Origin: Jaminaea rosea
Taxonomy: Eukaryota > Basidiomycota > Exobasidiomycetes > Microstromatales
Length of the DNA: 64,000 nt
Assembly: GCF_003144245.1 (NCBI RefSeq)
Contig: NW_020289987.1
Span: forward strand, 1 to 64,000
Direction: 5' to 3'
Shown: positions 34,273-57,371 of the stretch, one piece after another
How the letters are laid out: each line of letters opens with the position of its first letter
How positions within the stretch are numbered: position 1 is the stretch's first letter
Made by a program: the position numbers and the translations under genes
The notes under the pieces: generated by a model
Told to the model about the DNA's origin: nothing
The model's input: the letters and a program-made list of their open reading frames with translations, nothing else
Database searches by the model: none

Positions 34273-37200
34273 TCAAGCACGAGCGTTCAACCTCCTCTTA
34301 GCCTGCAGGGCTGCCATCAGCCCCCCAGCCCCACCAGCAGTCGCAGGACTGCCTGCCCCTCCTAGCCCGCCACTCTGACCACCTCCTAGTGCCCTCTTCG
34401 CCGGCGCAGGCAGTGCGGCTGGCTTTTCGATACCGCCCTTTGCGCCCGCTCCCTCGAACATGAAGACCTCGCCACCGCCGTTGACAGCTGCCGCGCCGAT
34501 ACCGCTGGCATTTGAGCGAACATTGGTACGATCCTGCAGCCCAGGGGCAGATGGCTTGTGTGGGGAAGGAGTGGAAGAGGGGGCGACGCGCGCCCGTGAT
34601 GGTGAAGGGGCATAAATGCCACGCGCTTGGCGCTGTGACTGCGACTGCGATTGCGACTGCGACTGGGCGGCCGAAGGGGTTGTTGTCATCGACCCATTGG
34701 CAAAGGTGAAGCCAGCTCCTGTCGTACTGGATTGGGCAGTCGCCGAGTCCTCTGGTGAAGAGCGCTTGCGTCCTATGACGGGTGATGAGCTCGATGACGA
34801 CGAGGACGCCGCCGCCGGCCTGTGAGCGGGAGCTGCGGCCGCGGCAGTGGACGTGGACGCTTGCGCCTGCTGCTGCTGCTGTGCAGTGGCGAGCTGCTTG
34901 GTCAAACTCTTGACCTTGCTGGCGAGCTTCTTGTTCTCCTTCAAACCCTCAAGGATACGCTCGTCCGCCCCCTCGATCTCATCCACCTTGGCTTCGAGGT
35001 CCTTTTCCAGGTCAGAGATGCGCGAAGTGAGGTAGGCGACCTCTTCTGCCAGTTCCGCATCATCTCCGCTTGAAGGTCGTTGCTGCTGCTGCTGCTGCTG
35101 CTGCTTGGCCGCAGCCAATTGCGCAGCCATATCGTCGAGCTCGCTGCGCAGCCCCTCCTCCCCATCACGCGCGGCCTGCCATTGTGCCTCGACCCTCACG
35201 AGCTCCAGCTTGGCGTCGCGCAGCCCGGCTTCAGCCTCGTGCGCCTTTCGCTTCAGGCTGGCAATCCCCTCCTCATTGAAACGGTGAGCAGCTTTACGGC
35301 GCTTGAGTTCGCCCTGCAAATCGGCCAGCTCCGAGGCCTTAGCCACATTGTCCCGCTCCACCTCTTCCAGTCGTTCGGCGCTGCCGCGTAGCTCCTCTTG
35401 GGCGTTGTGCAATTTCTCTTCGAGGGAGGAGAATCGTTCTGCCTCTTCGCGGGTCTCGCGTAGTTGCTCCTCCAGCCTTTCGATGGTCTCCGCTTCGGCG
35501 CGCGAGCGTTCTGCGTGCTCTTGTAGCTCGGCGACTTCCTCCTTGAGCTGCCAGTAGTCCTCGTTGCGCTCTTTCAAGGCAGCATCGCGGTCCGTGATGG
35601 CAGACTCGGCTTCATGGAGGGCCTCCTCGCGGGAACGGAGGAGAGACTGTAGCTCGTCGAGGCGGGGCTGGAGGTCGGTGAGTTGGGATCGGAGAGACTG
35701 GAGCTCCTGGCGTGCGACATCTTCTGCTTGTGACGCGCGAGATTGCAGGTCGGTGTAGCGCGTCTCGAGGTCTTGCTTGTCTGACTCCAGTGATGAGATC
35801 TTAGCGCTGAGCTCCTCGACCTCAGCCGCAGAGCTGGTGCGCAGCTCCTCGAGGACGGCTTCAATCGTCAGCTTAGCCTCGGCGGCAACGCTTGCCTGAT
35901 GGAGGGCCGCGCGCAGCTCCTCTTCGAGGTGGGCCACGGCCTCAGAGTGAGCCTGCTCTACCTCTGCCTCTCTTGCTGTCCGCGACTCAAGCTCAGCCTC
36001 CAGTCTCTCGACCATTTCCCTGTTCTCGCCAGCCTTCGCAGCCTCACGCGCCGTCACCTCAATCTGGTCCTTCTCCTCCTTCGCCCTACTCAGCTGTGCC
36101 TGCAAGACTTGCACCTCCTCGCGCGCCTCCGTCAGGCTCTCTTGGCTGGCACGCAGGTCCTCGAGCATGGTGGCCTCCTTCTGTTGGTCGCCGGACTCGG
36201 CCTCTGCAAGCTGGAGGGAGAGCTTTTCGCAGCGTGCTTCGACGTCGGCGTGAGCGGTGCGCAGGGCGTCCAGGTCGGCGACAAGCTGTGCCGCCTCGCT
36301 CTCTTTGGCCGTGGCCTCGGCCGTCAGCTGTTCGACGCGGCGCTGAGACTCCGCAAGTTCATTGGACAATGTTGCCATCGCCGTGACCTCGTCAGTCTGC
36401 TGCTCGTCTTGGTCTTGGCCACGTTGTTGCTGCTGCTGCTGCTGCTCAAGGTCCCTGGCTCTATCGACCTCGGCCTGCAGCTTCTCCTCAACGTCGCCGA
36501 GTGCCGCCTTTGCCTCCTCAACCCGCCCCTCAGCTTGCTCGAGCGTCTCGGCATGCTCCTTCACAGTCGCATCCAACCTCACTTTGAGACGCTCATGCTC
36601 TTGCTCTAGATCCATCTTCTCCTCAAGCAGCTCCTCATAGTCCTCCTCGGCCATGTTGAGCTTCGTGGTGACGCCCTGAAGCTTGAGCTGTTGGCTGCCG
36701 ATCTGTTCTTCGCGGCGGAGGATACGCGCCTCGAGCTCGGTGATCTTGGCGCGAAGCTGCGTCTCGCGCTTGGTCGAGGAGGCAGTCGATAATGAAGGGG
36801 AGGTGGTTGCTGACGATGAGGTGGTGGCGCCGCTTGCCAGCCACTGCCTGCACTCCGCAAAGCCTTGCATCGTCGCATCGCGCACTTCAAGCCAGGCAGC
36901 TTGGCTTTGGTGCTCAGCAGCCAGATTTGCCTCAAGCTGCTTGAGCCCCTGCTCTTCTGCTTGAAGCAGCTCGTCCGTCCTGCTCGCTGTACGCGTCTTG
37001 TCTTCAAGCTGGGCAAGGAGGCGTTGTTTGCCCTCGATGCGTTCCGTGATTGCAGCGATCGTGGCAAGGCGCGCCTGAGATGCCTGAGCGCTGTCTTGCG
37101 CTTGGGAGAGCGAGGTAGCGCGCTGGCTTTCTGCTTCTGCAAGGCGACGCTCGGCCTCTTGAAGAGTAGCGCGATGGCTCTTCAGGTCGGCGCGGTGGTC

Positions 37201-40048
37201 GTCGAGCTCAGAGCGCACAGCGGCCAGCTCAGCTTCGAGCTCCTCAACCCGCTCCTTCGCCAAGCGCTCGCCCTCCTGGCTCGCTTCAGCACTAGCGGCA
37301 TCGTGCGCCTCAGCCAGCTCACCGAGCTGCCTTTGCGCATCGTTCAGCTCGTCTTCTAGCCTCTCAATTCTCTCCGCTTTGCGCTGCCCCTCCTTGACCA
37401 GCCCGGCCGTTCTGACCTCCTCCTCCATCCCGACGAATCTCTGCCTCTCCTCAGCCTGCTCCAACGCCTCGCGCAACAGCTCAATCTGATCAAAGAGGTC
37501 CTCATCAAAGCCGCGCTGGAATTGCTTCCCGCCAGGTGTGGCGAAGAAGTGGCCGGACTTGAGCAGCTTGCCAATAGGGGTGGCCATGGGCGGCAATGGG
37601 GTTGAGCGGGCTGAGCGAGGAGTCGATGGACCATCGCCGCCGCTGCTGCTGCCGCTGCTTCCATTGGCGTTGACGCTCTGATGGCCAGCAACGAAGGCAG
37701 CAAGTCGCTTGATCTGCCTCTTGCTGAGCTCCACCTCATCTTCCCTCTTCTTGATGACGGCGCGAAGTTGGCCGAGCTCCCTGTCGCGCACATCCCTCTC
37801 GTCGCGGAGACGCTGCAACTTCTCTTCAAGGTCTGCGCCGCTGCCAAACTCGTCATTGGTGGCCGAAGAGCGCAGCACCTCGAGTTCGAGCGAAGCCTCC
37901 TTTGCCCCTTGGCGCAGTCGAGAGACTTCGTCAGAGAGAGACTTGATCTCACTGTCTTTGATGCGGAGCTGCCGTGAGTCCTCCTCTGCGAGGGCCTCGG
38001 CTTGCTCGAGGGCCGCCTCCCGCTCAGCGACGTCCTCGCGCAGGCTCTCGATCTGGCGTGAGAGGCCTTCGATCTCGGCTTGCAATACCTCCGAGTCCCG
38101 CTGCTGCTGCGTGGCGGCCTTCAGTGCGACGACCTTGTTCTCCAGCTCGTCCGCTCTGGCAGTGACTGCTTCATGCTGCGATTGCAGCTTGGCGTGTGCG
38201 CTTCGCAGCTCGACGAGCTCGGCCGAGTTACCCTGCCCGTCAATGTTGCGCTGCTCGGCCGCTTCGACTGCCATGGCTGCGTGGTGGAGATGCTCTTCTG
38301 AGTCTTTGAGACGATCCGCGACTTCAATCAGCTCAGCCTGTTTGGCCACAAGCTGCGATGCCGTGTCCTTGAGCTGTTGTCTGACCTCTTGCACTTCGGC
38401 CCGTGCAGAGTCCCTGCTCGACTGGAGCTCCTCGGCTTGGGTTGCCAATTCTGCCTTGAGCTGAGCTTGCTGCGCCTCGTAGCTGTCGACGGAGCCTTGA
38501 GCAATCTCGAGGTCGTGCTTGAGCTTGCGAAGCTCGTCGTGGAGCTGCGCGTCGGCATCGGCAGGCGAGCCGTCTGACAGTGCTGCTCCGCTTGCTTGGA
38601 GTCGTTCAATCTCGTCCTCGAGGCTGGTGACTTCATCCTTGAGCGAGTCGCGCTCTGCTGTAACTTGGGCGAGGGATCTTCGCAGCTCGCGCAACGCACG
38701 CGATTCGTTTGTGGGGGCGGCTGCTGCTGCTGATGAAGATGTGGGTGAGGAGGTCTGGGCGTCTTGCAATGCTTGTTCCGCAGCTTGCGATTCTTGTGTT
38801 GCCTTGGCCAGTCGGCTCTCGAGGTCGCTGACCTGGCTCTCAAGGCTAAATGCGCGCCCCTTGGCCTCTTCAACCTCAGCGAGGGCCCTATCAAGGGCTG
38901 CTCGATCGACGCCCTGCTTCGACGATGACGGAATTGACGACCGATCAGCCTTGCTTTGCAGGCTCTCAGCCCTCTGCTGCTCCCTCTCGAGCTGCTGTTG
39001 ACATTCTTGCAGCTCCTTTGCCACGCTCTCACACTCCTCCTTCTTCCACTCAAGGTCCTCCCTCAACTCCGCTATCTCCTGCCGCAGCTCAGCCGCCAGC
39101 TTCTCCCCCTGACGCTGTGCGGCCATAGTCTCATTGGAAGATTTCAGAGCCTCACGCTCTGCCTTAGTCGCCCTTTCCTCGACCTTTCTCATCTCGGCCT
39201 GAGCCTCTTGGTGCATCGTCTTGAGATCGTCAAGCTGGACCTGGAGGCGGGCGACGCTTGCTTCAGAGTGGGCAGCGGGGCCGGAGACTGATGAGGAGCG
39301 TGGGCGTCGGCGGTGAGAAGTGTTGAAGTCATCGCCTGCGCCGCCAAAGTGCATACTCTTCGACGCTTTGAGGGTACGTTGCGGTGAGGACGACGACGAC
39401 GACGCCGTGCTGGAGAGGCGCGCATTCTCTGCCTTGAGGACCATGTTCTCATTCTCGAGTGCAATGAGCTTGGCGGAGGAGTCGAAGCCTGATCGACCTC
39501 CCTTGCTCTCTTGTAGCTTAGCTTCTGCCACTCGCAGCTTCTCCTCGAGCTGCCTCCTCTCCTCGGCGTCAGCCCTCGCCTGCATGTCCACAGCACGATC
39601 GCGTTGTTGATCCTCCAATCTTCTCCCCTTTGCGTCTGTCGACTCCCTCTCCCTCGCCTTTTCGAGCGCTTGTTGTAGGTTCGTCATCTGCATCGCTTGT
39701 TGACTCATGTCAGCTCGAGCCTTGGCCAGGCCTTCCTCGGCCGTTGCGGCTCGAGACGACTCGGCATCGTATCGCAGCTGAAGTGTTGAGAGGCCGGCGC
39801 GAAGCTCCTCATTCTGGCGGTGTAGTTGGGCCTTTTCTGCTTCAAGGGAGCCGATTGTCAAGTCTATGTCGGGGTGGCGACGGCGAGAGCGAAGAGTGAT
39901 GGGCATGGCGAGTCGAGAGGCATTAGCATGAGGTCAGATGCAAGTGAGCGTGGTGTTGATTCGTCGTTGCGCTGCTTCTCTCACCTTGTGCGCCCAACTT
40001 CGTCTTTAGTCGGCGGATCTCCTGCCCTTCGTCTCCGAAGAAGGCCAT
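34273..40048 (-). CDS. Giant coiled-coil protein of unknown function
   Basis: Exons 40048-39985 and 39863-34273 give 1,884 residues. The first exon encodes MAFFGDEGQEIRRLKTKLG and splices to DLTIGSLEAEKAQLHRQNEE. Almost the whole length (about 20-1,680) is heptad-rich coiled coil. It is broken near the middle (plus 37430-37700) by a Ser/Gly linker and a non-heptad patch, GKLLKSGHFFATPGGKQFQ. The C-terminal 200 residues are Ser/Gly/Ala-rich and basic, with FMFEG and a final GLMAALQAKRRLNA. Such proteins often act as cytoskeletal, spindle-pole or Golgi scaffolds, but I do not recognise this one and assign no role. An ATG at 39906 in the second-exon frame is inside the intron and is not preferred. 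Confidence 0.85.
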
Positions 40049-44581: not shown

Positions 44582-46255
44582 TCAGTACATTGGGAAACCA
44601 GGGTCTACCTGCTTACTCCACGCCGTCAGCCCGCCGGTGATGTCTACGAAGCGCAGCTGCCTCCTCGACGAGGTCGCTCGTTCTTGTTCATCGCGGTCCG
44701 CGACGGCAACGAGCTGCTCAAGTGCCGCGACGGCCATCTTGGAGTCATTGCCGCGCTTGCAGAGGACTGGAACGTCTAGCGGTCCAGCATCGTCGACGTC
44801 GTCGTCGTTGTCCGAGGCAGGACCGAGAGCCTCCTGAATCTTTGCGAGTGACGTCTGTGGATCACTTCGTATTGAAGACCACGGTACGTCTGGTGGAGAG
44901 AGAGAGGGACAGCTCTTCTTTGTCAGCTTGCTTGCTTCCCCTCTGCTTTGCCCGCAAGGCCGTCGCGCGACACTCACTGATCGTATTCACACCTCTCGGT
45001 AGTCGAATGATGCTCCACTCCTCTTCAGTCCGTACGTCAACGACCAATCGCGGTCGTCGTGGCAAGTTTGTTAGGTCTTGCACGCTCGTCCTCGCACGTC
45101 GCTCGTAATCCTCGACCTCAGTACCTGGTCCTGTTGGCGGTAGGGTGGCAAGCCCGCAGAAGGAGATATAGTCCTCCTCTTCCAAGGAGGAGATACGACG
45201 CAGCCCCTTTGCCGTGAGCGCCGTCTCATCACCGCAGACTCGACAATCAGTGCGGCGTGGGCGGAGCTTGATGCTTCGAAAGAGCGTCGAGGAGGCGACG
45301 CTCATTGGGCTGGCCAGGAGCATCGTAGGCGTCGGTGGAGATGGTGAGCCCTCCCCATTTCCGTCTGCTGAGCGATGCAGCCCTTCGAGGAGCAACTTGA
45401 TCGTCTCATTAGCCTGCAACGTCCCCACCAGACCAGTGATAGTCCCCAGCACGCCGCCCTCGCTACAGTCGGTCACGTCTTGAGGGCGGGGGGCTACTGG
45501 GAAGAGGCAGCGATAGCATGGCCCGCGGCCCGAGCTCCCAGCGCCGTTGATGTCGTATAGCTCGCGATGTAGTACAACGAGCTGCCCTTCTAACCCCTGT
45601 GCCGCGCCCGATACCACGGCCTTGCCGCACAAGACTGCGGCGTCGTTGATAAGGTAGCGAGTGAGTGGGTTGTCCGTGCAGTCTAGCACTAAGTCATGGG
45701 AGGAGACGAGGGGAAGGGCGTTTGATGCTGTGAATTGCTGCGTGATTGGTGCAAGAGTGACGTGAGGATTCAAGCTGAGGTGTGGGCGCGAGCCGGGCAG
45801 TAGGGAAGTTGTCAGCGGGACGAGACTGCACGATGTTGAGCGTCGCGTGTCGCATTGTCGCGTACCGCAAGTACCACTCACGCCTCTACGGCCACCCGGA
45901 TGCTTTCGGCCTTGCTCATCCCGATTCTCTTTTCGGTATGCAGACATTGCCTAGCCAGGTTGCTCCTCTCAACCACATCGTGATCCACCACGGTGATGTG
46001 TCCAACCCCGCCCAGAGCCAGGTACTGCACAGCTGGGCAGCCTAAACCTCCTGCGCCTACGACGAGGACACGGGAGCGTTTCAGGATGAGCTGAGCCGGC
46101 AAGCCGCCAAACCCAGGGAGGATCATTTGACGACCATAGCGCTGGTATTCGGAGGGCGTCAAGGGGAGCGAGTCAATCTTTGTCGGGGCTGGCGGCCACA
46201 GCTCTTCCTCCTCTTCGTCTTGCTCGCCACGGTGGTGCAACCCAGTGTCCTTCAT
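44582..46255 (-). CDS. UBA4: UBA4/MOCS3, E1-like sulfurtransferase for URM1
   Basis: Exons 46255-45882, 45774-44978 and 44889-44582 give 492 residues. UBA4 adenylates and thiocarboxylates URM1 for 2-thiolation of tRNA U34, and in many eukaryotes also serves MOCS2A in molybdopterin synthesis. The E1 domain (about 30-290) shows [59 protein letters not shown], zinc pairs CYRC and CRVC, and the catalytic Cys in [10 protein letters not shown]. The rhodanese domain (about 355-492) shows [20 protein letters not shown] and active-site CKRGNDS, and ends [12 protein letters not shown]. The start at 46255 lacks the N-terminal coiled segment of some homologs, so an upstream exon is not excluded. Confidence 0.94.
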
Positions 46256-47067: not shown

Positions 47068-48742
47068 ATGGCTCGTGACAGGCTCGCAGCAATGAGGGTA
47101 AGTAGCAGCGGCTTCTCTCGGAGAGGTGAGACGAGCGAGCCGCAAAGCTGACATCCTCTTCCTTTTGATCTCTCTGGACGCAGGCGCAGCAGGCAGGAGG
47201 CGGTGGAGCTGGTGGTTACGGTGGATACGGAGGTGGTAACAACGGCTATGGCGAGCACGCTTACCCGACACAGCAGACGGGTTACACGCCCGGCGGGTTT
47301 GCGGGTCAGCAGCAGCAGGGATACGGGCAGCAGCCGCAGGCCGGCTATGGGCAGCAGGGTGGTTACGGTCAACAGCAAGGTGGATATGGTCAGCAGGGAG
47401 GCTATGGCCAGCAGCAAGCTGGCTACGGTCAACCTCAACAGGGCTATGGCCAGCAGCAGGGCGGCTACGCGCAGCAGGACCCCTACACCGTCCCTGCAAA
47501 TGGCGCCGCCAACAACTACGAGATGCAGGAGAAGCCTGGAGGAGCCGGTGACATGAATGTGCGCAAGCCGCGGCGCAGGACTGGTCGTCGAATCTGCTCG
47601 CTGACTTGCGTCCCTTCCCTTTGACCCCGCTCCGCTAGTCCTTCTTTGGCGAAATCTCAGCCATTCAGGACATGATCCGCCAGATCGAGGACAATGTTCG
47701 TCGCATCTCTGACCTGCACAACCGCTCCCTCAACAACGTCGACGAGGCTGCCTCGCAGCAAGCTCACGCTCAGCTGTCCGGCATCTCGTCAGAGACGTCC
47801 AAGCTGACGAACACGGTCAAGAACCGCATCAAGAAGTTGGAGGCGCAGAACAACAAGGTGCCAGAGGGAGGAGACAAGAATGTGCGAAGGACGCAGGTTG
47901 GTTCGCTGAAGAATCAGTTCAAGGGGGTGATCCAGAACTACCAGTGCGTAGCGTAGGAAGCGTGCTAGACGAGAAGCGGACATGTTCGCTGATTCTCCTT
48001 TCTTCTCTTCTCGCCGCCCTCGCAGGGAGGTTGAGCAGCAATATCGCCAAAAGTATCGTCAGCGCCAAGAGCGTCAATTCCGCATCGTCAAGCCCGATGC
48101 CACGCCCCAAGAAGTCAAGGCAGCGCTCGACGACGATTCTGGCGGGCAGATTTTCTCTCAGGCCCTGCTCAACTCGAACCGCCATGGCGAGGCTCGTGGT
48201 GCGCTGCGTGAGGTACAAGAGAGACACGAGGACATCAAGCGTATCGAGAAGACGTGAGTACGGCGCGACACGACGATGGCGTGTTTCGCAGCCTGACCTG
48301 TCGCTCACTGACCCTTCGCGCTCCCTTGTCTGTTCACAGCATCGTCGAACTCGCCCAACTCTTCCAAGAGATGGACATCCTCATCTCGGAGCAAGACGAC
48401 CAAGTCAACGCTATCGAGGCCACGGCAGTCAACGTCGAGCAGGACATGTCCGCTGGTCTGGCCGCAACGGGCAAAGCGGTCAACTCTGCGCGTGCGGCGA
48501 GGAAGAAGAGAAAGATCTGCTTCATCATCATCGTCATCACTATCCTGGTCATTGCGGCCATTGTGGCTGCGGTGGTGTGCACAAAGAGCGACACGGCATG
48601 TGGAAGAAATGGGGGCAGCAGTGGTAGCGGGGGAACGCAACAGAGGCGTGCGCTGGCGCTGGGAGGTGGACAGGAATACGGTGATAGACTCGAGCTCTGG
48701 AGCAGGGCGCAGATGGGGAGAGCATTTGGTGTCGAGCAGTGA
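47068..48742 (+). CDS. SSO1: SSO1-like syntaxin (Qa-SNARE) with GYGQQ-repeat head
   Basis: Exons 47068-47097, 47184-47558, 47639-47943, 48026-48253 and 48340-48742 give 446 residues. It is a plasma-membrane t-SNARE for exocytosis. Residues 11-118 are almost entirely Gly, Gln and Tyr, with repeated [11 protein letters not shown] units. A normal syntaxin body follows: [19 protein letters not shown] (Ha helix), [16 protein letters not shown] and Hc [19 protein letters not shown]. The SNARE motif [33 protein letters not shown] has the central Gln in LFQEMD. A basic RKKRK precedes the membrane anchor (about 372-393). Unusually, about 53 residues (Ser/Gly-rich, with Cys) follow the anchor on the extracellular side. 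All four splice joins fall within conserved syntaxin sequence. Confidence 0.93.
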
Positions 48743-49266: not shown

Positions 49267-51316
49267 ATGTCAACCTCCTTCCTCAAAAAAGCTCGCGATC
49301 GTGCCCAAGAGGCTGCAGCCTCGTTCACGGGCTCTGGCCACCACCAACAAGACTCGAGCAACACGACCACGTCCTCGGCCTCGACGTCGAGCGGCTTCAC
49401 CTACACGGGCTCGCTCCCCCACGTCCTTCGCCATGGAGTCGCCTCCCTCGATCCGCGTTTCGAGTCGACTCGCTCCCTCCACGTCATGCGTGGCGCCCTC
49501 AAGGCCGTCGTCATAGATGGTCAGGCCCTAGCACGAGAGACCAAGACGGCTGCTGCCAAGACGTTCAAGTGGGGACAGGATCATGCACGCCAGGATCGCG
49601 TAGATGGGGTGGCGGATGAGCCCTTGGCTGACATGTGAGTGCGAACGAACAGGAGGAGAGTGGTTCAATGAGAGAACATATACTGACCTATCTCTCCTCT
49701 CCACCGCCTCTCGCGCGCGCAGCACCGACCGTCTTGCGGCCATTATGAGCATCCTCGGCGACCTAGAATCCGAGCACTCGACCCGCCTCGCAACCGCACG
49801 CCAAGAGCTCAAGGCCATCCAACAAGCAGAGCAAGACCTCGCCGCCAAGCGCGCCCAACGAATCAAGGTGGTCAAGGAGCTCCAGTCCCTCGTCGGGGAG
49901 CGTCAGAAGCCCGGTGGCCATCCCAAGGCCGACGACTTGGAAGCACAGCTGCGCCAATTGGAGGGAGAGGCAAAGCATCCCGAGGAGGAGCTGGCACGCC
50001 TGAAGCGCAGGCAGGTGCAGAAGAGCTTCGATAAGCAGATGGACTCGTACATCGAGCACGGGGAGAAGCTGGCCCTCGTTGCTTCGTATGGCAAGTTGCT
50101 CATGCAACAGGTCCCCACAGACGATAAGGAGGACCCTGTGGTCTTCCCTGCCACTGAGAAGCATAGCGTGGGGAACAAGAGCTGGTCGGGCGCCGGAAGG
50201 ACGGCACAGGTTCGTGCCATGGTTGAACCAGCGCTCAAGGCTTATGTGTCGAGGACGCCCGTTCCTAGCCTTCCTGGCGACGCCGTAGGTGCAAAGGGAA
50301 CTGCGCTTGGTGGTGCACCCGCAGCCACGCACTCGGATGCCGCCTCATTTGGGACCAGTCATGCGCATGAGCTTGCCCAAGACGACGAAGATGACGAGTT
50401 CCATGACGCTCGCGATGCGCACTCTACGCCTACGGGCGGCGCTACGACGGCTCCGGCCGCGCAGCAGCACGTCCTCCCACCTCTGCCTCCCTCCGCCCCT
50501 GTTCCCCTCTCACCCTTGCCAGAGAGCGACCTCAAGGCGGGTGGACCGGCCACCTCAGCCGCAGCCGCCGCAGCCGCAGCCGCAGCCGCAGCGCCCGCAC
50601 AGGGGGATGGGCATGCGCCCAACCCTCGCTGGAACCATTCCCCCTCACACATCCCTCAGGCAGTCGCCCGCCCTCCACCATTCGAACGCACATCCTCGGC
50701 CACTTCCCCGCCTCCCGCACCAGGAGGAGTAGGGGCCGTACCTCTCCCTCCCGTCGACTCGTCAACCACCACACCGGCCACGGCCACGGCGCATGGCGAT
50801 GATAATGTTTTTGAGGATTCGGCGCCTCCCGGCCCAACGGTGGCCGAAACGGGCGCCGTACTGCCTTCGAGCCCCAATGGACCTGGACCGATTAGTGGCA
50901 CTTTGGGGAGGAGGAGGCCCAGTGGGGCAAGCATGAATAGGCCGCATCACCCTCCGCCCCTGCCTTCCCGCCCTGCTGCTGGTGGTGGTGGTATGGCAGG
51001 CATTGGATCTGGAGGCGGAACCCCTGCATCACCCGGCGGTCCCGTGGGCAACTCGACGCCAGCGGTCATGCCGCCCTCTGCTACTTCATCGTTCCCACCT
51101 AGCATGGGCGGTGCCGGTGTCCACGCACGTCTTCGCCGTGATGGCACGATTACGCGTCGTGGCGTAGACTCGGACTTCGAACGTGCTGAGGAGGAAGGTT
51201 TGCCTCCTGCTTACGAGGAGAGCGAGACTGCTGGAGGGGGCAGCGGCGGCGGCGCTGGAATGAGCGGGAGCACGAGCACGATGGGAGACGTCAAGACGGC
51301 GAGGGGGCCGATGTGA
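49267..51316 (+). CDS. Eisosome core component, PIL1/LSP1 family (divergent)
   Basis: Exons 49267-49634 and 49723-51316 give 653 residues. PIL1-family BAR proteins scaffold eisosome furrows of the plasma membrane. The BAR-like region (about 35-300) shows DRLAAIMSILGDLESEHS, LKAIQQAEQDLAAKRAQRIK, a helix KADDLEAQLRQLEGEA, and the most family-like segment KSFDKQMDSYIEHGEKLALVASYGKLL (given here as an interval, residues about 220-246, with key IEHGEKLALVASYGK). The remaining 350 residues are a Pro/Ala/Gly-rich disordered tail with a polyalanine run and LPPAYEES near residue 620, a potential WW-domain ligand. Classical Pil1 is about half this length. It is probably one of the extra PIL1-domain paralogs of basidiomycetes and not the main Pil1. 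Confidence 0.82.
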
Positions 51317-55212: not shown

Positions 55213-55599
55213 ACGAGCGAGTCCAGAAGAAGAAGAATAGTACAGGCGAGCGAATGGCCCTACCCTAGTTTGATTGACTAGCGTGACGGCAGCATAGTCG
55301 AGGTCGAAGTGATGGTAAAGTCATCAAGACGATCGCCGCCAAGATGCGCACACAAAGTGGAGAGATGCCTGCCCCGGCCCGCCTCGGTGCGAGCAACACA
55401 CACGCACGGCCTCGTTGAATTCACATACGCCCGCCGCCGCCGCCGCATGCCCGCCCGCGCGGCTCAGGCTCCAAGCTACTCACTCCCGCTCCTCATCGCG
55501 TTCTATTTCTCGCCCCTTTCACTTTCACTATCTTCCCCCTTCCTCAATCTCATCCATCCTCTCGCTCTTCCCATCGGCCGCCTTGTATAGCGCGCTACA
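55213..55599. promoter_or_regulatory. Divergent promoter, PX gene / Golgi protein gene
   Basis: 387 bp between opposed ATGs, with CCG-rich triplets (near 55429-55444) and a pyrimidine-rich leader before the plus-strand start. Confidence 0.55.
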
Positions 55600-57371
55600 A
55601 TGGCTTCATACCCCTCCTATCAGCGCCAAAATGGCGGTGGGCATGCCGATGACTACTATCAGAGGTACCACGACCGTGAGGCAAGCCCGTATGCAGCATC
55701 CAATGCGTATCCTCCGCAATCCTCACTCCTCTCACCCGCCAACAATGCCACCTCTACCCAGGCCAATGGCGGGTTGCAGCGCGGCCCTACTGTCACTACG
55801 ACGAACACGCAAGCGTCACACAACCGAAGAGACGACACACGTAGCGCATATACGGGCGCAGCCTCGACTACAAACACACGCCCCTCGGCCACATCAAGGG
55901 GCATCGGTTCAGCTCTACGCACCCCCCGCCGAACTCTCGGATCAGGTATCATCCCATCCTTCTCCTCCGGCCTCTTTCTTGCCGTCGTCGTAGTCGAGGC
56001 AGCGGCCATCATCGGCCTGGTCGTGAGCGTCTTTGGCATCGTCGAGGTACGAACCAAGATCCTCACCCAGGATGCAAAGACGGTCCCCGTCTTTTTGGCA
56101 TTGTTTGTGTTCGGAGCCTTGTTCTTCGTGGTGATTGCGCTTGACGCATTCAGGCTGCACAACACCATCCAAATCGTCGGATGCGTCATCTACAATATCG
56201 CGCTGCTAATTACGGCGAGCCTGGAAGTCTCCCAAGTCCGGGCCGCTTTTGCCAATCAAGATCGATATGGCACTGGCGTGCCATGCCCCTTCAACGAGCG
56301 CCGCAGGTGTGGAGCGGTCGACACCCTCTACCCTGCCGTGCGACCGCAACTCATCGCCACGCCCATCATCATTGGAGTCGCCCAGATCCCGCTCACGCTG
56401 TTGAGCTTCAGGCTCTGGCAGGATTTTGGATGGGAGGTGTACAAGAAGATTGGAGCGGATGTGATCAAGAGAAGGATGATGCTCGTCTACCAGATCTTTG
56501 TGTGCTTCCTCAAGTTCGACTTCTTCTTTGGAAGTGAGTGCGCGCGCGGCCAAAGACAGAGCCCCAGCCGCATTCACGCAGTAGACTGACCATCCCCTTC
56601 CCAACCTTCGCGCCTCGCACAGGCGCTTTCTGCATCGCCTTCCTCATCCTCGTATCCGATCGCGGCGATTATGAGTTTGGTCTGACAATAGCCGCCCTAC
56701 CAATCGCCCTCGTCATCCTCTTCCTCAGCGCCTTCGCCGTCCGCAAGGAGATCTACAGCTTGATGACTCTCTGCATCATCGCTATGGCGGCCGGCATGGT
56801 TTATTACATTTGGAAGCTGACCCGAATTTTCAGCTCAGAGACGGAGCAACAATATCGCACTGTGCGGCTCACGCTCACATTCTTCAGCATCTTCTCAATC
56901 GTATCGCTTGGAGCGACGATCGCACTGGCCATCTGGTGCACGATCAACTTTGGTAAGGGGCTGAGGGAGGCGCACGAGAGCATGGGAGGGATCATCCCTG
57001 CGCTTGATGCCAAGATTCGAGGCGGAGGCAACCGCAGCGAGGTAGCGAGTAAGCCGTTTGGTATCGAGTACGACGATGATGCTGGAACAGGTGACCCGGC
57101 AGAGAGGCAGAGGCTGGGAGGAGAGAGCGCGTCAAGCTCCCCCGAGGCGTACTCTGCTGGTCATTATGGGGCGGGGATGAAGCAGCAGCAGCAGCAGCGT
57201 CCAATCGACGAGGAGGACGAAGATCAAGAATCTGCGTATCCGAACTACAATACCAAGGTGATGCAGGCGAATACTGGGCGATACCACACCCCGCAGCACC
57301 AGAAGCAGCAGCAGCTCGGTGGCTTCACATCGCCGCCTGTCGGTCCCCAGAGGAGGGTGTCGCTAGATTAA
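55600..57371 (+). CDS. UPF0658-type Golgi membrane protein
   Basis: Exons 55600-56533 and 56623-57371 give 560 residues. A Ser/Tyr/Asn-rich cytosolic N terminus (about 1-125) is followed by eight probable membrane segments: FLAVVVVEAAAIIGLVVSV, FLALFVFGALFFVVIAL, IVGCVIYNIALLITAS, IIIGVAQIPLTLLSF, FFFGSAFCIAFLILVSD, IAALPIALVILFLSAFAV, LMTLCIIAMAAGMVYYIW and FFSIFSIVSLGATIALAIW. The acidic/Gln-rich tail is cytosolic. The pattern KFDFFF, then DRGDYEFGLTIAALP and AVRKE, is that of the UPF0658 family (S. pombe C1952.10c-like), located in the Golgi, with unknown biochemical function. The splice join falls inside the fifth membrane segment. Confidence 0.85.

What the first reader, a model, noticed from the sequence alone, without database searches (positions are those of the whole stretch)
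47184..47540. Prion-like GYGQQ repeat head on a plasma-membrane syntaxin
Residues 11-118 of the SSO-type syntaxin are nearly all Gly, Gln and Tyr, with at least seven [11 protein letters not shown] units, a composition like FUS/EWS-type low-complexity domains that phase-separate. It replaces the short N-peptide through which syntaxins bind Sec1/Munc18, and it is joined by clean splicing to a normal Habc and SNARE body. A condensing t-SNARE head could cluster exocytic sites at hyphal tips or septa.
Basis: partly seen in the sequence, partly recalled or inferred. Interest (0 to 1): 0.7.

Follow-up and report, generated by a model that had tools for sequence, protein, structure and literature searches.

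The report
Fungal syntaxin with sticky repeat linker
A fungal membrane-fusion protein (a plasma-membrane syntaxin) carries a long glycine-glutamine-tyrosine repeat that sits behind an animal-like docking peptide instead of replacing it, and its likely partner Sec9 carries a similar stretch, which suggests a tether or clustering device that could be tested.

Summary
The repeat is real. A five-exon gene (47068-48742, +, 446 aa) encodes an Sso1/Sso2-type syntaxin. Residues 11-108 are 37% Gly, 30% Gln, 13% Tyr, with 6 GYGQQ units. It is the richest such tract among 287 window frames and holds 6 of the 24 GYGQQ sites found in the 16.6-Mb genome.

The reading needs correcting. Exon 1 encodes [10 protein letters not shown], which fits the N-peptide that docks Sec1/Munc18 proteins, so the repeat follows the N-peptide and does not replace it. 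Behind it, DPY...NYEMQE aligns with the Sec3-binding end of yeast Sso2, though only one degenerate motif remains. Mso1, the yeast Sec1 helper, was not found. The genome's Sec9-like SNARE also has a Gly/Gln/Tyr-rich head.

Best model: N-peptide hook, disordered Tyr-studded tether, reduced Sec3 hook, ordinary syntaxin body. Condensation is possible but untested, and no orthologs from other fungi could be compared. New variant of a known kind.

The parts
47068..47097 (+). Exon 1: [11 protein letters not shown]-peptide-like docking segment
   Evidence: Frame and splice; in-frame stop 5 codons upstream and no ATG in the preceding 300 nt; 1 of 1361 ATG starts fits the strict pattern
47098..47183 (+). 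Intron 1 (86 nt, GT-AG, phase 0)
47184..47477 (+). Exon 2, residues 11-108: Gly/Gln/Tyr low-complexity tract with 6 GYGQQ
47478..47531 (+). Exon 2, residues 109-126: DPY...NYEMQE, aligned with the Sec3-binding end of yeast Sso2
47532..47558 (+). Rest of exon 2, linker to Habc; exon 2 is 125 codons between phase-0 introns
47639..47943 (+). Exon 3: start of the Habc domain
48026..48253 (+). Exon 4: end of Habc and region up to the SNARE motif
48340..48742 (+). Exon 5: SNARE motif, transmembrane helix (hydropathy peak 374-392), C-terminal tail, stop

Best explanation
This is the exocytic Qa-SNARE (Sso1/Sso2 ortholog) of a fungus, with a modular N-terminus. (1) Residues 1-10 are a retained N-peptide that docks on domain 1 of Sec1. 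(2) Residues 11-108 are a disordered Gly/Gln tether with regularly spaced tyrosines; it extends the reach of the hook and probably makes weak, reversible multivalent contacts, including with the similar head of Sec9, raising the local density of t-SNAREs. (3) Residues 109-126 are a reduced docking motif for Sec3 of the exocyst. (4) Habc, SNARE motif and anchor are ordinary. Shown: sequence, frame and splice signals, orthology, composition, the synonymous drift in the repeat, a Sec9-like protein with a similar head, no Mso1 match. Inferred: Sec1 binding, Sec3 binding, disorder, tether function, contact with Sec9 and any clustering.
For: Orthology. N-peptide: in-frame stop upstream; 1 of 1361 ATG starts fits the strict pattern; rat Stx1A begins MKDRTQEL (sequence seen in PMC6320071); a review passage (PMC9492833) says STX11 R4A (with L58P) causes a defective STX11-Munc18-2 interaction and Munc18-2 E132A (with P477L) disrupts fusion. 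Docking site: L029 (Sec1) aligns to Munc18-1 with E132 kept and F115 changed to Leu, by counting along the printed alignment (that these two residues belong to the pocket is recalled). Mso1 (PF14475) has no match at E<=1; PMC9671497 passages say Mso1 is ascomycete-specific, helps place Sec1 at the membrane, and that yeast Sso1/2 lack the N-peptide that does this in higher eukaryotes. [quoted passage not shown] Sec3: NYEMQE block aligned with Sso2; one Sec3 PH domain in the genome. Constraint: at the 39-nt period 20 codon pairs give 6 identical, 11 synonymous, 3 non-synonymous, nucleotide differences 0/3/12 by codon position. Aromatic spacing s.d. 1.33 against a shuffled mean of 5.48, 0 of 20000 shuffles as even. 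L020 (matches yeast Sec9, E 3.3e-28) has a 73% G/Q/Y stretch with one GYGQQ.
Against: No binding, disorder or condensation test was possible. F115 is Leu in this Sec1. Only one degenerate DPY stands for the two NPY motifs; in yeast each motif alone bound three- to fourfold more weakly. Even Tyr spacing follows from tandem repetition itself. The tract has no Arg. The Sec9 link was noticed after the search: 11 long frames besides this one carry GYGQQ, several with RNA-related or other domains. phmmer with the first 20 residues found no solved chain at E<=10. The Mso1 search had no fungal positive control and could miss a domain cut by an intron. No orthologs from other fungi could be aligned.
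Confidence: 0.5

Rival explanations
1. Passive spacer: the tract is an expanded, disordered linker tolerated because it lies between N-peptide and Habc, with no function beyond length and flexibility.
For: Linkers in front of Habc in yeast Sso2 homologs are non-conserved and of variable length (PMC9427108 passages); the tract is a tandem repeat; 16 other places in the genome hold GYGQQ, 11 of them in long frames.
Against: Third-position bias at the 39-nt period suggests that the peptide is kept; composition is extreme for the window; a Sec9-like protein has a similar head.
Confidence: 0.3
2. Multivalent exocyst docking: the regularly spaced Tyr act as many weak versions of the NPY pin for the Sec3 PH domain, so the tract recruits syntaxin to Sec3-marked sites.
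For: In yeast the Tyr of NPY docks in a Sec3 pocket and two motifs act synergistically; Sec3 PH is present and alignable; the tract runs into the DPY...NYEMQE block.
Against: The units are GYG, not NPY; no Asn-Pro precedes the Tyr. The Sec3 pocket residues were not compared one by one.
Confidence: 0.12
3. One reading: a prion-like head that condenses and takes the place of the N-peptide.
For: Composition and even Tyr spacing.
Against: Exon 1 carries an N-peptide-like sequence in front of the tract. No condensation evidence; no PDB match of the tract by sequence (low-complexity queries are hard for this method).
Confidence: 0.06
4. Gene-model artefact: exon 1 or exon 2 does not belong to the syntaxin.
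For: No RNA evidence.
Against: All splice sites GT-AG and frame kept through five exons; exon 2 carries the NYEMQE block that aligns with Sso2 in continuity with Habc; coding-like third-position drift in exon 2.
Confidence: 0.02

Closest known systems
Yeast Sso1/Sso2 (exocytic Qa-SNARE)
   Same: Habc and SNARE motif; NYEMQE block with an NPY-like triplet in front of Habc
   Different: About 108 residues in front of the DPY; one degenerate DPY instead of two NPY; an N-peptide-like start, reported missing in yeast Sso1/2 (PMC9671497 passage); longer tail behind the anchor
Animal syntaxin-1 N-peptide (rat Stx1A MKDRTQEL)
   Same: Asp-Arg-x-x-x-hydrophobic at the extreme N-terminus, in front of a linker and Habc
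   Different: Leu for Thr and Met for the final Leu; PMC6320071 counts residues 1-26 as the whole N-peptide segment of Stx1A, here about 125 residues lie between the motif and Habc
FUS/EWS-type prion-like domains (composition recalled)
   Same: Gly/Gln/Tyr repeats with evenly spaced Tyr
   Different: No Ser and no Arg in the tract; membrane-anchored protein without an RNA-binding domain; no PDB match by sequence
Sec9-like Qbc-SNARE of the same genome (L020)
   Same: N-terminal G/Q/Y-rich region with GYGQQ
   Different: One GYGQQ, best stretch 73% against 88%, contains Arg and more Pro and Ser

Membership tests
Sso1/Sso2-type exocytic Qa-SNARE | Syntaxin and SNARE domains above curated cut-offs | tested here: met
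   PF00804 66.2 bits (cut-off 26.7), PF05739 33.8 bits (cut-off 26.8)
Sso1/Sso2-type exocytic Qa-SNARE | Closest relatives are plasma-membrane syntaxins | tested here: met
   Five best of 33 matched PDB sequences are Sso2 or Sso1, followed by syntaxin-1 chains
Sso1/Sso2-type exocytic Qa-SNARE | C-terminal transmembrane anchor | tested here: met
   Hydropathy peak at 374-392
Sso1/Sso2-type exocytic Qa-SNARE | Acts at the plasma membrane | not testable with these tools
   Inferred from orthology
Syntaxins with an SM-binding N-peptide | D-R-[TL]-x-x-hydrophobic at the extreme N-terminus | tested here: met
   MARDRLAAM, 1 of 1361 window ATG starts; the pattern was written with the peptide in view, and a looser one hits 3 of 1361
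Syntaxins with an SM-binding N-peptide | Binds domain 1 of the cognate SM protein | not testable with these tools
   Only two site residues compared: E132 kept, F115 to Leu in L029
Sec3-binding double-NPY syntaxins | Two NPY motifs | tested here: not met
   One DPY at 109-111, no NPY
FUS/EWS-type prion-like domain | Repeated Tyr-Gly/Ser-Gln composition | tested here: inconclusive
   Gly 37, Gln 30, Tyr 13, Ser 0 per cent; no PDB match by sequence; PLAAC not run
FUS/EWS-type prion-like domain | Condenses or forms reversible assemblies | not testable with these tools
   No experiment

The most novel reading that the evidence does not exclude
Both exocytic t-SNAREs of this fungus carry matched Gly/Gln/Tyr heads that co-condense at the membrane and concentrate Sso1-Sec9 acceptor complexes, with the N-peptide held at the far end of the tract to catch Sec1 in place of the Mso1 route used by yeast. 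Skipping the symmetric exon 2 (125 codons, phase 0 on both sides) would give a 321-aa form without the sticky tract.
Probability: 0.17. Interest if true: 0.75.

Novelty: new variant of a known kind. Interest (0 to 1): 0.42.

Why it matters
[quoted passage not shown] Here is a fungus in which Mso1 was not found, whose syntaxin starts with an N-peptide-like sequence and whose Sec1 frame ends in a Lys-rich tail. That makes a simple answer testable: the N-peptide does Mso1's job. The Gly/Gln/Tyr tract, seen on the syntaxin and on a Sec9-like protein, makes t-SNARE clustering by low-complexity contacts testable with purified proteins.

Tried and rejected
Rejected: 'the repeat replaces the N-peptide'. 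Rejected: a fresh microsatellite-like expansion (third-position differences dominate at the 39-nt period; caveat: that period was chosen because it aligns best, and over residues 56-108 offset 13 gives 8 identical, 15 synonymous and 17 non-synonymous codon pairs, other offsets more non-synonymous). Rejected: Sec1's tail as a third matched tract (best stretch 25% G/Q/Y with at least 5 Tyr, 42% with at least 3).

Led nowhere: viral contigs (31 pattern matches, none confirmed) and plasmids (no match). I found no collection here with other fungal genomes, so the proposed ortholog alignment was not run, and the organism was not identified. phmmer with the first 20 residues and with the tract gave no match at E<=10. 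Literature: searches (9 of 9 papers listed; 20 of 44; 10 of 113; 1 of 1; 10 of 21) listed no paper whose title or shown abstract describes such a head on a syntaxin; the 10 listed papers hold GYGQQ 0 times. Most were seen only as listings; this does not show that nothing is in print. I recall, untested, that Sso proteins of filamentous ascomycetes have Tyr/Gln/Asn-rich N-termini, which would make the head less unusual.

Limits of the background: the 287 window frames and 201 frames of other loci are stop-to-stop frames of at least 100 aa on both strands, most of them not genes; L004 and the 24 GYGQQ loci L005-L028 were left out of the second set, which was gathered by family searches and counts a few overlapping frames twice. 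Of the 11 long GYGQQ frames outside the window, 9 were scanned with Pfam; L008 and L009 were not.

Full report
Observation. The gene at 47068-48742 (+) has five exons: 47068-47097, 47184-47558, 47639-47943, 48026-48253 and 48340-48742. The four introns are 80-86 nt and GT-AG, and the frame is 446 codons. An in-frame stop lies five codons upstream of the ATG, and no ATG occurs in the preceding 300 nt. Pfam finds Syntaxin (133-284) and SNARE (334-384) above cut-off. The five best of 33 matched PDB sequences are yeast Sso2 or Sso1. Residues 11-108 are 37% Gly, 30% Gln and 13% Tyr, with no Ser, Arg or Lys.

More than chance. The DNA pattern for GYGQQ occurs 6 times in the window against a mean of 0.00 in 100 shuffles. 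In the genome (16.6 Mb, 21 contigs) the search found 24 sites, 6 of them here, and 0 for the reversed control; the tool warns that its counts can be lower bounds. The other 18 sites lie in 16 places: 11 in frames of at least 180 codons, 5 in shorter frames, none with more than 2 GYGQQ. The best 60-residue stretch with at least 5 Tyr is 88% G+Q+Y; the next of 287 window frames reaches 42%, and the best of 201 frames of other loci (L004 and the GYGQQ loci left out) reaches 25%. The imperfect repeats differ mostly at third codon positions: at the 39-nt period 20 codon pairs give 6 identical, 11 synonymous and 3 non-synonymous, with nucleotide differences 0/3/12 at positions 1/2/3. The seven GYGQ units use varied codons: 84 codon comparisons give 32 identical and 52 synonymous, non-synonymous ones being excluded by the choice of units. 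The peptide seems to have been kept while the DNA drifted.

The N-peptide is not replaced. Exon 1 encodes [10 protein letters not shown]; rat syntaxin-1A begins MKDRTQEL (sequence seen in PMC6320071). Of 1361 ATG starts in the window without a stop in 15 codons, only this one fits M-x(0-3)-[KR]DR[LTVI]xx[LMFI]; a looser form hits 3. The pattern was written with the peptide in view. Of the three other loci with a SNARE-domain match, L003 shows SFKDRTNELRSY near a Met and L001 shows TRSRTLLFLSYR inside a long frame, which lacks the Asp; L002 shows nothing similar. I would call these Sed5-, Tlg2- and Pep12-like from recall; this was not tested. A review passage (PMC9492833) reports that STX11 mutations R4A and L58P cause a defective interaction with Munc18-2, and that Munc18-2 mutations E132A and P477L disrupt vesicle fusion. 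The genome has five PF00995 matches, which I take as four genes. L029 aligns best with Munc18-1 (E 4e-28) and more weakly with Sly1 and Vps45; by that alignment E132 is kept and F115 is Leu. That these residues belong to the N-peptide pocket is recalled. A phmmer search with the first 20 residues alone found nothing.

Fit with a fungus lacking Mso1. PMC9671497 passages say that yeast Sso1/2 lack the N-peptide, that ascomycete-specific Mso1 helps Sec1 reach the membrane, and that it is not apparent why the basic Sec1 tail occurs in non-ascomycetes. A six-frame search for Mso1 (PF14475, 40 positions) gave no match at E<=1; it had no fungal positive control and could miss a domain cut by an intron. 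The L029 frame ends in a Lys-rich tail. An N-peptide and a basic Sec1 tail without Mso1 make a coherent set.

Sec3 side. [quoted passage not shown] phmmer aligns the stretch from residue 110 here with the Sso2 stretch PYENNNPYAENYEMQE. Only DPY (109-111) resembles the motif. The genome has one Sec3 PH match, alignable with yeast Sec3 (E 4e-18); its pocket residues were not compared one by one. Reduced Sec3 docking is plausible but unproven.

Sec9. Of the 11 long GYGQQ frames outside the window, 9 were scanned with Pfam: two RRM proteins (L007, L019), an SH3 protein (L012), Het-C (L013), an SHD1 protein (L015), an XRN nuclease (L016), a CUE protein (L021), one without a hit (L010), and L020, which had only a SNARE hit below cut-off. 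L020's body matches yeast Sec9 (E 3.3e-28). Its head reaches 73% G+Q+Y in 60 residues, and its aromatic spacing is more even than about 97% of shuffles. That the syntaxin's expected partner is among 11 such frames is suggestive, but it was noticed after the search.

How it probably works. The N-peptide catches Sec1; the tract holds it on a long flexible arm; the Tyr residues give weak multivalent contacts with similar tracts (Sec9) or other partners and so raise t-SNARE density at exocytic sites; the reduced NPY block and the body meet Sec3 and the SNARE partners as in yeast. Every step from sequence to binding and clustering is inference. Exon 2 is 125 codons between phase-0 introns, so skipping it would give a 321-aa syntaxin with the N-peptide directly before Habc; there is no transcript evidence.

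Limits. No other fungal genome was available, so conservation of the tract is unknown and the organism was not identified. No PLAAC, disorder or structure prediction was run. A passive expanded linker remains a serious rival.

Noticed in passing
window 48575-48739: About 53 residues follow the transmembrane helix, whereas syntaxins are described as having a very short tail there (PMC2952630 passage; positions). It may be a real extracellular tail or a missed 3' intron.
   Followed up: no
window 49604-51313 (+): Eisosome component Pil1 homolog (PF13805) directly downstream: two plasma-membrane genes side by side.
   Followed up: partly
window 44865-45950 (-): ThiF-family gene upstream on the other strand (PF00899), Uba4/MOCS3-like by recall.
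   Followed up: partly
L020 (G000:C12:111949-114963): Sec9-like SNARE with a Gly/Gln/Tyr-rich N-terminal head containing GYGQQ.
   Followed up: yes
L013 and L015: A Het-C protein whose frame ends in GGYGGQQ-type repeats, and an SHD1 (Sla1-like) protein with TG/Q/YG repeats.
   Followed up: no
window 55591-56586 (+): Frame containing MASYPSYQRQNGGGHADDYYQRYHD, rich in Tyr near its start, without a Pfam hit.
   Followed up: no
window 34276-39933 (-): Open frame of 1886 codons without a Pfam match.
   Followed up: no
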